From NCBI RefSeq assembly GCF_004331075.1, contig NZ_SJNX01000008.1:1-64000 (forward strand): a stretch of 64,000 nt of DNA. Reading direction: 5' to 3'. The translations under genes were made by a program, and so were the position numbers. This stretch comes from Acinetobacter brisouioides (GTDB taxonomy: Bacteria > Pseudomonadota > Gammaproteobacteria > Pseudomonadales > Moraxellaceae). Of this stretch, positions 41,923 to 44,324 are shown piece after piece. The notes beneath the pieces are model-generated. The model made no database searches and had not been told where the DNA came from. It saw only the letters and a program-made list of their open reading frames with translations. The first letter of the stretch is position 1. Each line of letters begins with the position of its first letter.

Positions 41923-43710
41923 ATGGAACTGACGCTTGGCGCCAATACTGCACTTGCAACAACACAACTGACTGTAGACATACAGGTTTTTGGTTTAAGC
42001 GCAGCAGATTTAGACTTTAGCGTCTACCGCCTTGCTCAGCAGACTCAACAAGTTCGTGGCGATGATGACATGATTTTTTATGGGCAACCGCACGATCAAG
42101 CGCAAACGCTCAGTTTGTCAGGCAATTCTATTGGTGCATGTTTAACTATTGATTTATCTCGCCAACCTTCTGAAATCGAAAAAATTGCGATTTGTGCTAC
42201 CCTCGCCGATTCCTTTCGCAATTTTTCAGCCATCAATTTCTTAAAAATCAAATTACTCAATCAAAATGAAGTCCTTGCTCACGGTAAAATTTTAGGTGAA
42301 CAACGTCGTGAAGCCGCACTGATTTTAGCGGAAATTTACCGCTACAAAGGGCTTTGGAAATTTCGCTTAGTCGGACAAGGTTTTCATGGTGGGCTCAAAC
42401 CTTTGGCGGAACATTTTGGCGTGAAAATTATAGAAGAATCTGAAGGTACTTCGCCAACGCCAACGCCAACGCCAACGCCAACGCCAACGCCAACGCCAAC
42501 GCCAACGCCAACGCCAACGCCAACGGAATCATCCAACTTTCTTAAGGGTATTTTGTCAAACCCACTAAAAATATTTGAGAAACGTAAGCACCTAAAAGCC
42601 TTTCAGCAATTGATCGGAAATCTGTTTCAAACTCAACAACTGACCGACAAAACCCAGCAACAACTGATACAGTTTTGCCAAACACATCAGCTCGACCTCA
42701 AAGAGGCCTTAGCGTTTTCCCAACAAGAAACTCATTTGTTTTTAATTACAGCGACCAGTAAACAATCAAAGCTAACACTTGAGCGCTGGATGAACTTTTT
42801 ACATCCAGCCGAAAAAACCAGAAGCCAAGTTTATGCCTTACTCAAACAAACGGCAGAACAGCAATTTCGACAAAAACTGCAAGAAGCATTAAACATACGT
42901 CAGTTAACCACACCAAATATGCAAGATTTGGATCAGCTGTGCCACAGTCAGCAATTGGATAAAACATCGCTAATGCATAGCATGCACAAAGAGATTCAGA
43001 ACTTTCTGCAGTTTAAACTTGCCAGCATGAGCGCAGATGGCTGGGTCGATCAGGCTGAACAACTTGAATTCCAGCAGCTTTGCCAATTCTTACAGGTTAG
43101 CTTACAGGCTGAACGTGATTTACAAGCCCGCATTGCTAAGACCAACCAGATTTATAAAATCCGTCAAGGGCAAGTTAGCCCGATCCAAACCAATCAAGTA
43201 ATCTTAAAAAATTTGGAAGCGTGTTACCTCCATCAGACTCAAGTTAAAAAACTCCATACCAAAAAAGAAGCGGTGATTGGAGATTTATTCATTACCAATG
43301 AACGCCTGATTTATATATCCGACATGGCACTGGAAATTCCGATTGCTCAAATCATGGCAGTCGAATGTCACGCTGCTACCATTTACATTACCGCGAAAAC
43401 CAAAAAAGCCTCAGGTGAGTTTTGGATTGGGGAACATGCCGATTTGGTTGAAGCTTATATTGATCAGGCGGTTAAACGCTTCCACCGCCAAGTGGATTTG
43501 CAACAAACTTCGGGTAGCACGCGACATATTACACAAAACGTTAAAAATGCGGTATGGGAACGCTGTCAAGGCAAATGCGTGGAATGCAATGCATCGTCCT
43601 ATCTAGAGTTTGATCATATTATTCCCTTTTCTAAAGGTGGCTCAAACTCGGAACGCAATATTCAATTGCTCTGTCGGGCATGTAATTTGGCGAAAAGTGA
43701 TCGGTTATAA
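41923..43710 (+). CDS. Multidomain TerD-(PT)12-TerB-like-PH/GRAM-like-HNH nuclease protein
   Basis: A 595-residue cytoplasmic protein. Residues 1-172 form a TerD-type domain (LTLGANTAL, GDDDMIFYGQ, ILAEIYRYKGLWKFRLVGQGF). A linker of twelve Pro-Thr pairs (178-201) is encoded by a perfect CCAACG tandem repeat. Residues 215-405 are helical, with a TerB-like SADGWVDQAEQLEF segment near 370. Residues 420-525 look like a PH/GRAM-type domain (GDLFITNERLIYISDMALEIPI). Residues 534-595 are an intact HNH nuclease: Cys552/Cys555, the DHIIPFSKGG motif with His565, and Cys584/Cys587. TerD domains belong to the Ter stress-response network and HNH fusions suggest DNA processing or defence. No other ter gene is nearby. 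Confidence 0.85.
   Translation: MELTLGANTALATTQLTVDIQVFGLSAADLDFSVYRLAQQTQQVRGDDDMIFYGQPHDQAQTLSLSGNSIGACLTIDLSRQPSEIEKIAICATLADSFRNFSAINFLKIKLLNQNEVLAHGKILGEQRREAALILAEIYRYKGLWKFRLVGQGFHGGLKPLAEHFGVKIIEESEGTSPTPTPTPTPTPTPTPTPTPTPTPTESSNFLKGILSNPLKIFEKRKHLKAFQQLIGNLFQTQQLTDKTQQQLIQFCQTHQLDLKEALAFSQQETHLFLITATSKQSKLTLERWMNFLHPAEKTRSQVYALLKQTAEQQFRQKLQEALNIRQLTTPNMQDLDQLCHSQQLDKTSLMHSMHKEIQNFLQFKLASMSADGWVDQAEQLEFQQLCQFLQVSLQAERDLQARIAKTNQIYKIRQGQVSPIQTNQVILKNLEACYLHQTQVKKLHTKKEAVIGDLFITNERLIYISDMALEIPIAQIMAVECHAATIYITAKTKKASGEFWIGEHADLVEAYIDQAVKRFHRQVDLQQTSGSTRHITQNVKNAVWERCQGKCVECNASSYLEFDHIIPFSKGGSNSERNIQLLCRACNLAKSDRL
42454..42525 (+). repeat. Hexanucleotide tandem repeat CCAACG x12 inside the TerD-HNH gene
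   Basis: Twelve identical CCAACG units (72 bp) encode Pro-Thr x12. The unit is two codons long, so slipped-strand changes would alter linker length without breaking the frame. The perfect identity suggests recent expansion. Confidence 0.95.
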
Positions 43711-43826: not shown

Positions 43827-44324
43827 ATGAACCGCAACATGAAATATTCTGTTTTCCTTAGCATACTAATTGGCTGTCTTTTACCGACAATGTCACAAAC
43901 TCATGCGAATCCTGTTTATTCTGTCAATATTTTAAATCGCCCTTGGAACTGCTCATTTTATAATGGTTATCAAGTCCCAATTTACCTAGACCCAAGTCTC
44001 AACAATGTTGGCGTGGCAGGAAATACCCCACCACATATTGTTTTAAATCCAGTCGTCATGAATCAATTTTCACCGACTATGCAAATATTCTGGCTGGCAC
44101 ACGAATGTGTTCATGCAACCTATCAACCTGTTTCTGCAAATGAAAATCAGGAAATGACAGCCGACTGCATTGCAATTAAACAGTTAAGACAATTGAATTT
44201 AAGCCCAAGAGAAGTCAATGAAATTGCTTGGCAAACTTTGCCTTTGCTTGGCAGTACACATACAGGGCACTTACCCGGCCCACTGAGAGCGCAGCATATT
44301 ATGCAATGCTATATGTCGCCTTAG
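43827..44324 (+). CDS. Small exported zincin-like protein (predicted metalloprotease)
   Basis: A 165-residue protein with a signal peptide (MKYSVFLSILIGCLLPTMSQTHA at 5-27) and a HExxH motif, HECVH at 92-96, followed after 12 residues by QEMTADC, where Glu109 or Asp113 could be the third zinc ligand as in ExxxD-type zincins. It has four or more Cys in the mature part, so disulfides are likely in the periplasm. It looks like a minimal secreted metalloprotease. I do not recognise a named family. It follows the TerD-HNH gene by 116 bp. Confidence 0.7.
   Translation: MNRNMKYSVFLSILIGCLLPTMSQTHANPVYSVNILNRPWNCSFYNGYQVPIYLDPSLNNVGVAGNTPPHIVLNPVVMNQFSPTMQIFWLAHECVHATYQPVSANENQEMTADCIAIKQLRQLNLSPREVNEIAWQTLPLLGSTHTGHLPGPLRAQHIMQCYMSP

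What the first reader, a model, noticed from the sequence alone, without database searches (positions are those of the whole stretch)
41923..43710. Stand-alone TerD / TerB-like / PH-GRAM-like / HNH nuclease fusion
One gene appears to combine a TerD domain, a TerB-like helical segment, a PH/GRAM-like segment and an intact HNH endonuclease with its four zinc cysteines and DHIIPF core. It is not in a ter operon. Comparative genomics of the Ter stress system (TerD/TerB/TerY network) has predicted links to DNA processing and phage defence. A single polypeptide with sensor and nuclease parts could be a self-contained defence or stress effector. The HNH call is direct from sequence; the two middle domains are weaker.
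Basis: partly seen in the sequence, partly recalled or inferred. Interest (0 to 1): 0.78.

Follow-up and report, generated by a model that had tools for sequence, protein, structure and literature searches.

The report
TerD-tethered HNH nuclease, Ter-system satellite
This bacterial gene joins a piece of the tellurite/stress "Ter" machinery to a DNA-cutting enzyme through two adaptor domains; related cutting modules turn up on prophages and beside restriction genes, which makes it a good but untested candidate for a DNA-cutting arm of the Ter system.

Summary
Window 41923-43710 (+) is one intact 595-aa gene: TerD (1-165), a disordered Pro-Thr linker coded by twelve CCAACG repeats, a helical region with a TerB-type motif (214-414), a PH/GRAM fold (424-525) and a complete HNH nuclease (534-595). 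TerD and HNH pass Pfam cut-offs; PH/GRAM is shown by structure; TerB only through relatives' profiles. "Self-contained" is doubtful. The gene stands alone here, but its TerD is closest to the N-terminal TerD of the ter operon's double-TerD protein. All five Acinetobacter genomes found with the TerD-to-HNH architecture also carry that double-TerD gene (35 of 175 do overall); a sixth genome outside the genus, checked afterwards, does too. In Deinococcus radiophilus the nuclease heads a run of ter genes. The TerB-PH-HNH half is a separate mobile module, found on prophages and, at some loci, near restriction-modification genes; it seems to have joined TerD at least twice. Best reading: a nuclease effector docked on Ter assemblies by its TerD domain, probably against phage or foreign DNA. 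Docking and defence are inferred, not shown. Against a metabolite-signal model, this genome lacks two Ter enzymes (PRTase, StiP). New variant of a known kind.

The parts
41923..43710 (+). whole gene, TerD-(PT)n-helical/TerB-like-PH/GRAM-HNH protein, 595 aa, stop included
41923..42417 (+). TerD domain (residues 1-165), of a divergent kind without the GDNRxGxGxGDDE loop
   Evidence: Pfam PF02342 93.1 bits; fold match 3ibz Z 17.8; loop missing
42436..42558 (+). disordered linker (residues 172-212)
   Evidence: pLDDT below 50
42454..42525 (+). (CCAACG)12 run coding Pro-Thr repeats; a run of the same unit and number is in the linker of a ter-operon double-TerD gene, L011
42562..43164 (+). all-helical region (residues 214-414) with a TerB-type ADG..E motif; D372 invariant in the alignment
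43192..43497 (+). PH/GRAM-like domain (residues 424-525)
43522..43707 (+). HNH (H-N-N type) nuclease domain (residues 534-595); Cys 552/555/584/587, D564-H565, N579, N588
   Evidence: Pfam PF01844 47.3 bits; invariant columns

Best explanation
It is a nuclease effector that works as a satellite of the Ter system. The TerD domain, kin to the N-terminal TerD of the ter operon's double-TerD protein, docks the enzyme on Ter assemblies encoded elsewhere in the genome. The long flexible Pro-Thr linker lets the rest move. The helical TerB-like region and the PH/GRAM domain hold or gate the nuclease through protein or membrane contacts. On threat, the HNH domain nicks or cuts DNA, most likely incoming phage or plasmid DNA, or host DNA as an abortive response. 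Shown: architecture, conserved active site, purifying selection, co-occurrence with a ter gene, mobility of the module. Inferred: docking, gating, DNA target, defence role.
For: TerD and HNH above Pfam cut-offs. PH/GRAM by fold. Active site invariant in 12 of 12 aligned sequences. TerD of the five Moraxellaceae nucleases is sister to the double-TerD N-domain of four Acinetobacter (98/97). All 5 Acinetobacter genomes with the TerD-to-HNH architecture carry a double-TerD-type hit, against 35 of 175 overall (hypergeometric P 2.5e-4). G601, outside the genus, was checked afterwards and has it; G171, with a TerD-less nuclease, does not. In D. radiophilus it is the first gene of a same-strand run of ter genes. 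The TerB-PH-HNH half matches phrog_6050, is in Acinetobacter prophages and, at two loci, beside a Z1 helicase with C5 methyltransferase, or type I RM with Mrr. Literature: a Ter model with TerB and TerD as possible signal binders and possible use by jumbo phages against superinfection (PMC7824862, passage); TerB in the anti-phage systems Shango and Bunzi (PMC10952713 table passage; PMC10250203 passages).
Against: No experiment on any member is known to me. The window gene sits among ordinary genes, not in a defence island. The co-occurrence is about three independent lineages in the genus: G000 and G119 are 83% identical copies, G043 and G100 hold a nearly identical prophage gene that is also shorter (509 aa, one helical stretch missing). 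G694 has ter genes but only a partial PH-like hit, so ter does not imply the nuclease. Viral-contig examples come from a virus-only collection, so their phage setting is partly circular. At 3 of the 7 viral loci whose neighbours were scanned, PADLOC found nothing. D. radiodurans has the gene with no ter gene annotated within 10 kb. PRTase and StiP of the Ter biosynthetic module are absent from this genome and G119, so a Ter metabolite signal cannot be general. Fold search gave no TerB match for the helical region. Docking was not modelled.
Confidence: 0.45

Rival explanations
1. A stand-alone restriction-like or abortive defence nuclease that needs no Ter partner; TerD, zinc-ribbon-like, DUF2510 or membrane segments are interchangeable sensors or anchors.
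For: The TerB-PH-HNH module occurs without TerD: forms with paired CxxC (zinc-ribbon-like, by eye) L074, L075, L084, L085, L086, a form with a membrane-like start L073, and forms with more helical repeats L077, L078, L088. L078 is beside type I RM and Mrr, L075 beside a Z1 helicase and methyltransferase. The window and other Acinetobacter copies have different flanks.
Against: The TerD-bearing copies co-occur with the double-TerD gene in 6 of 6 Moraxellaceae genomes checked, and one heads a run of ter genes.
Confidence: 0.22
2. A stress or DNA-damage nuclease for the cell's own DNA, used with Ter during oxidative or radiation stress.
For: D. radiodurans and D. radiophilus carry it; D. radiodurans ter genes are listed in a table of a radiation-resistance paper (PMC1978522, passage); a pilot study calls a role of the E. 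coli ter operon in UVC resistance partially confirmed (PMC8123226, passages).
Against: Patchy distribution (5 of 175 Acinetobacter genomes), prophage carriage and a broken copy in A. brisouii do not suit housekeeping.
Confidence: 0.15
3. A selfish, homing-type HNH gene that picked up accessory domains.
For: Nearest phage-record hits for the HNH part are mostly annotated HNH endonuclease or endonuclease VII; prophage carriage.
Against: The gene is free-standing and its flanks differ between lineages; introns and inteins were not searched for. TerD is under purifying selection too (dN/dS 0.12).
Confidence: 0.1
4. A scaffold in which the HNH domain is no longer catalytic.
For: A TerB-PH-like protein without HNH exists in two genomes of another genus of the family (L067, L068).
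Against: Catalytic and zinc positions invariant in 12 of 12 sequences; HNH is the most constrained part, dN/dS 0.028.
Confidence: 0.05

Closest known systems
Ter system (TerD/TerB/TerC/VWA network; Anantharaman, Iyer and Aravind 2012, not held; title seen in reference lists, content recalled)
   Same: TerD domain akin to a ter-operon protein; TerB-like helices; one homologue heads a run of ter genes
   Different: not in the operon here; carries a nuclease; this genome lacks PRTase and StiP
phrog_6050, HNH endonuclease family of phages
   Same: the TerB-PH-HNH half matches, residues 313-594 to profile 62-360 of 402, E 1e-38
   Different: TerD and the Pro-Thr linker are outside that match
Shango and Bunzi anti-phage systems (TerB-containing)
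   Same: TerB-type domain in a defence setting; a weak BnzB-like neighbour (E 1.4e-7) near homologue L076
   Different: Shango has separate TerB-like, helicase and ATPase genes; no such partner was found among the 10 window neighbours scanned
HNH domains of McrA-type, IscB/Cas9-type and SAVED-fused (7rwm; the name Cap5 is recalled) nucleases
   Same: HNH-region sequence similarity only
   Different: no guide-RNA, SAVED or methyl-base recognition family was hit by Pfam at E <= 1

Membership tests
TerD (PF02342) | profile score above cut-off and TerD fold | tested here: met
   93.1 vs 25.3 bits; 3ibz Z 17.8, rmsd 2.6, 156 residues
Canonical TerD with acidic loop | GDNRxGxGxGDDE loop conserved in the 7 operon TerDs aligned | tested here: not met
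   motif absent in 8 of 8 nuclease TerDs and 5 of 5 double-TerD N-domains; that the loop binds metal is recalled, not tested
HNH endonuclease (PF01844) | score above cut-off, four Cys, DH..N..N core | tested here: met
   47.3 vs 21.4 bits; invariant residues
TerB (PF05099) | profile score above cut-off | tested here: inconclusive
   no hit in the window protein; 5 of 12 relatives hit at E <= 1, L088 above cut-off; fold search gave no TerB match
PH/GRAM superfamily | PH/GRAM fold | tested here: met
   1zvr MTMR2 Z 13.5, rmsd 2.2, 100 residues; GRAM, bPH_3 and Vps36 Pfam scores stay below cut-off
Ter system member | encoded in a ter operon | tested here: not met
   none of 10 window neighbours scanned is a ter gene; met in D. 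radiophilus, not in D. radiodurans within 10 kb
Ter system member | ter genes elsewhere in the same genome | tested here: met
   double-TerD hit in 6 of 6 Moraxellaceae genomes with the TerD-to-HNH architecture; own cluster on C13
Known anti-phage system (PADLOC) | whole-protein model match | tested here: not met
   6 part matches at E <= 1, best PDC-S48 E 1.8e-7 over residues 303-409
Anti-phage defence | protects against phage | not testable with these tools
   needs plaque assays

The most novel reading that the evidence does not exclude
The Ter system has a separable DNA-cutting arm: satellite nucleases, some carried by prophages, plug into the host's Ter assemblies through a TerD domain copied from the operon, so that a prophage turns the host's Ter machinery into a superinfection defence.
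Probability: 0.25. Interest if true: 0.78.

Novelty: new variant of a known kind. Interest (0 to 1): 0.55.

Why it matters
Ter operons have been linked to phage inhibition and, by prediction, to DNA processing; the passages I read name no DNA-cutting component. A nuclease that shares a domain with a ter-operon protein, co-occurs with it and once heads the gene run gives that link a concrete, single-gene test: express it with and without ter genes, with an intact and a dead active site.

Tried and rejected
Pfam on the window protein alone found no TerB and only a sub-threshold PH-like hit (Vps36); PfkB and similar weak hits were set aside as chance. NCBIfam gave IscB/Cas9-like hits in the HNH region, all far below cut-off, and low-complexity hits in the Pro-Thr linker. 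Fold search of the helical region alone: no Foldseek hit at E <= 0.001, best second-look Z 7.0, no TerB chain listed; inconclusive. A Ter metabolite-signal mechanism was considered and dropped for this genome because PRTase and StiP were not found. An empty-site comparison through the neighbouring GlxA-type regulator of G119 was tried; of 12 loci I read 4, and none of the 3 outside G119 showed the same left flank, so no clean empty site was obtained. A search for the D. radiodurans locus tag (recalled) gave 25 papers, 20 listed; by title most are unrelated, probably archive accessions, and none was opened, including one on Deinococcus rubellus. Phage records were searched with the window protein and two module queries: the rows listed match TerD alone or the HNH end, except Bacteroides phage BS-TP3, which matches over PH and HNH; 20 of 37 and 20 of 34 records were listed. 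Literature searches: I read passages of nine papers (PMC3710099, PMC7159879, PMC12839542, PMC10250203, PMC10952713, PMC7824862, PMC1978522, PMC12363816, PMC8123226) and none of these passages describes this fusion. No whole paper was read, and the 2012 Ter paper is not held, so it may mention such fusions.

Full report
WHAT IS THERE. The gene at 41923-43710 (+) is an intact 595-codon ORF. Pfam finds TerD at 17-165 (93.1 bits, cut-off 25.3) and HNH at 552-594 (47.3 bits, cut-off 21.4). A twelve-copy CCAACG run at 42454-42525 codes a Pro-Thr linker. An AlphaFold model (mean pLDDT 81.7, pTM 0.50) shows a TerD beta sandwich, a disordered linker at 172-212, helices at 214-414, a PH-like domain and HNH. 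The PH part fits the MTMR2 PH-GRAM domain (1zvr, Z 13.5, rmsd 2.2, 100 residues); the TerD part fits 3ibz (Z 17.8). The helical part is TerB-like through relatives: 5 of 12 module sequences hit TerB at E <= 1 and L088 passes the cut-off. The window protein itself does not hit TerB, and a model of that part alone (pLDDT 90.7) found no TerB chain, so this stays inconclusive. The zinc cysteines and the DH..N..N core are invariant in the 12 aligned sequences (window plus 11 relatives; L009 and L010 are near-copies). Against L007 (83% identical) dN/dS is 0.09, and 0.028 in HNH, with dS 1.15 overall.

DISTRIBUTION. Of 175 Acinetobacter genomes, 36 matched at E <= 1e-20. Five carry the TerD-to-HNH architecture: G000, G119 and G088 at full length, G043 and G100 in a 509-aa form without one helical stretch. 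G171 has only the TerB-PH-HNH half. G013 has an 85-residue match that ends early. Apart from the nuclease genes themselves, the matches are through TerD. A family-level search with TerB-PH matched 7 of 199 genomes at E <= 1e-4, three over nearly the whole query (G000, G601, G171). In 398 genomes of the phylum, the listed matches beyond the HNH end were the window's own gene and a partial hit in G248 (in one search two of 14 control genomes rang, Escherichia coli and Deinobacterium chartae). Homologues with TerD and HNH were also found in Deinococcus radiodurans and D. radiophilus and in a viral-collection contig, L076, where a DUF2510 and a zinc-ribbon-like segment are added. In A. brisouii (L039) the same locus holds only the first 88 codons, followed by what look by eye like the 3' part of a regulator gene and a transposase fragment.

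LINK TO TER. The tree of TerD domains puts the five Moraxellaceae nuclease TerDs next to the N-terminal TerD of the double-TerD protein of four Acinetobacter (98/97). The Deinococcus pair falls elsewhere on a long branch and L076 is a long branch of unsure place; starred branches force at least two label changes. Two joinings are the simplest reading, since the Deinococcus nuclease half is 48-49% identical to the TerD-less L075 protein but 30-32% to the window's; one joining with later losses is not excluded. Some double-TerD genes have the same kind of hexanucleotide Pro-Thr linker, L011 with twelve CCAACG copies; in this genome's own ter region no such run was found. I count 35 of the 175 genomes with a double-TerD-type hit. 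I read such ORFs from five loci (L002, L011, L013, L022 from the genus and L040 from outside it) and judged the rest from match range and frame length; one of them (G120) is cut by a contig end. All five nuclease genomes are among the 35 (P 2.5e-4 without correction for kinship); allowing for shared descent this is about three independent cases. G601, which holds the same protein as the MAG locus L037, was then checked and has the double-TerD gene with further TerDs on one contig; G171, G085, G655 and G248 have none, and G694 has ter genes with only a partial PH-like hit. In D. radiophilus the gene is the first of a same-strand run TerD, VWA, TerD, TerD, DUF475, next to divergent ATP-grasp, PRTase, HAD, AIM24, StiP and aldolase genes. 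This genome's own ter cluster on C13 holds several TerDs with, read by eye, a TerC-like gene, an AIM24-like gene and the double-TerD gene. PRTase and StiP were found in G088, G043, G100, G601 and G013 but not in G000, G119 or G171 (StiP rang in 1 of 14 control genomes). So that half of the system is not needed wherever the nuclease occurs. The nuclease TerDs lack the acidic loop of the canonical TerDs aligned (8 of 8), so I favour docking over metal sensing.

MOBILITY AND DEFENCE SETTING. The TerB-PH-HNH half matches the phage family phrog_6050 (residues 313-594, E 1e-38). In viral contigs I found the module on 12 contigs (duplicates between the calls removed by contig name); L086 and L087 are probably the same element and L087 was not read. 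In the genomes G043 and G100 the TerD-bearing gene lies in prophages, with antirepressor, tail, lysis or head genes around, and the G171 form lies in a third. PADLOC scans covered 18 neighbour proteins at 7 of the 12 contigs. L075 is beside a Z1 helicase and a C5 methyltransferase; L078 beside type I RM and an Mrr-type gene; L073 has a C5 methyltransferase and a GHKL ATPase some kilobases off in the same element; L076 has a weak BnzB-like neighbour and a weak PDC-M09A-like one; L074, L077 and L086 gave none. The window gene itself is among ordinary genes: 9 of 10 neighbours scanned have ordinary Pfam families and one has none.

MECHANISM. I commit to a Ter-docked nuclease effector (0.45). Shown: domains, conserved active site, selection, co-occurrence, mobility. 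Inferred: docking through TerD, gating by the helical and PH parts, DNA as target, defence as role. Ter as a means against superinfecting phages, with TerB and TerD as possible signal binders, is a published proposal, which also reports a nearly complete Ter system in an Acinetobacter jumbo phage (PMC7824862, passage). TerB occurs in Shango and Bunzi (PMC10952713 table passage; PMC10250203 passages). Novelty: each part is known, and Ter links to DNA processing were predicted before (the 2012 paper, title seen in reference lists, text not held), so this is a new variant of a known kind rather than a new kind.

Noticed in passing
window 43827-44324 +: Small protein downstream with a signal-like N-terminus and an HExxH motif (HECVH), both by eye; no Pfam family above cut-off.
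   Followed up: no
L067 1405-2619 and L068 391-1236: TerB-PH-like proteins without an HNH domain beside gatB-like genes (by eye) in two genomes of another genus of the family; the L067 protein has a membrane-like N-terminus.
   Followed up: no
L011, L012, L013, L015, L017-L020, L023, L026: Loci with double-TerD-type hits contain Pro-Thr-type hexanucleotide runs of 5-15 copies; only those of L011 and L013 were read and lie in the linker.
   Followed up: partly
L039 7998-9341: A. brisouii TUM15274 has the same locus with the gene cut after 88 codons, next to what looks like a transposase fragment.
   Followed up: partly
G000 and G119: Ter genes present, but PRTase and StiP of the Ter biosynthetic module not found.
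   Followed up: yes
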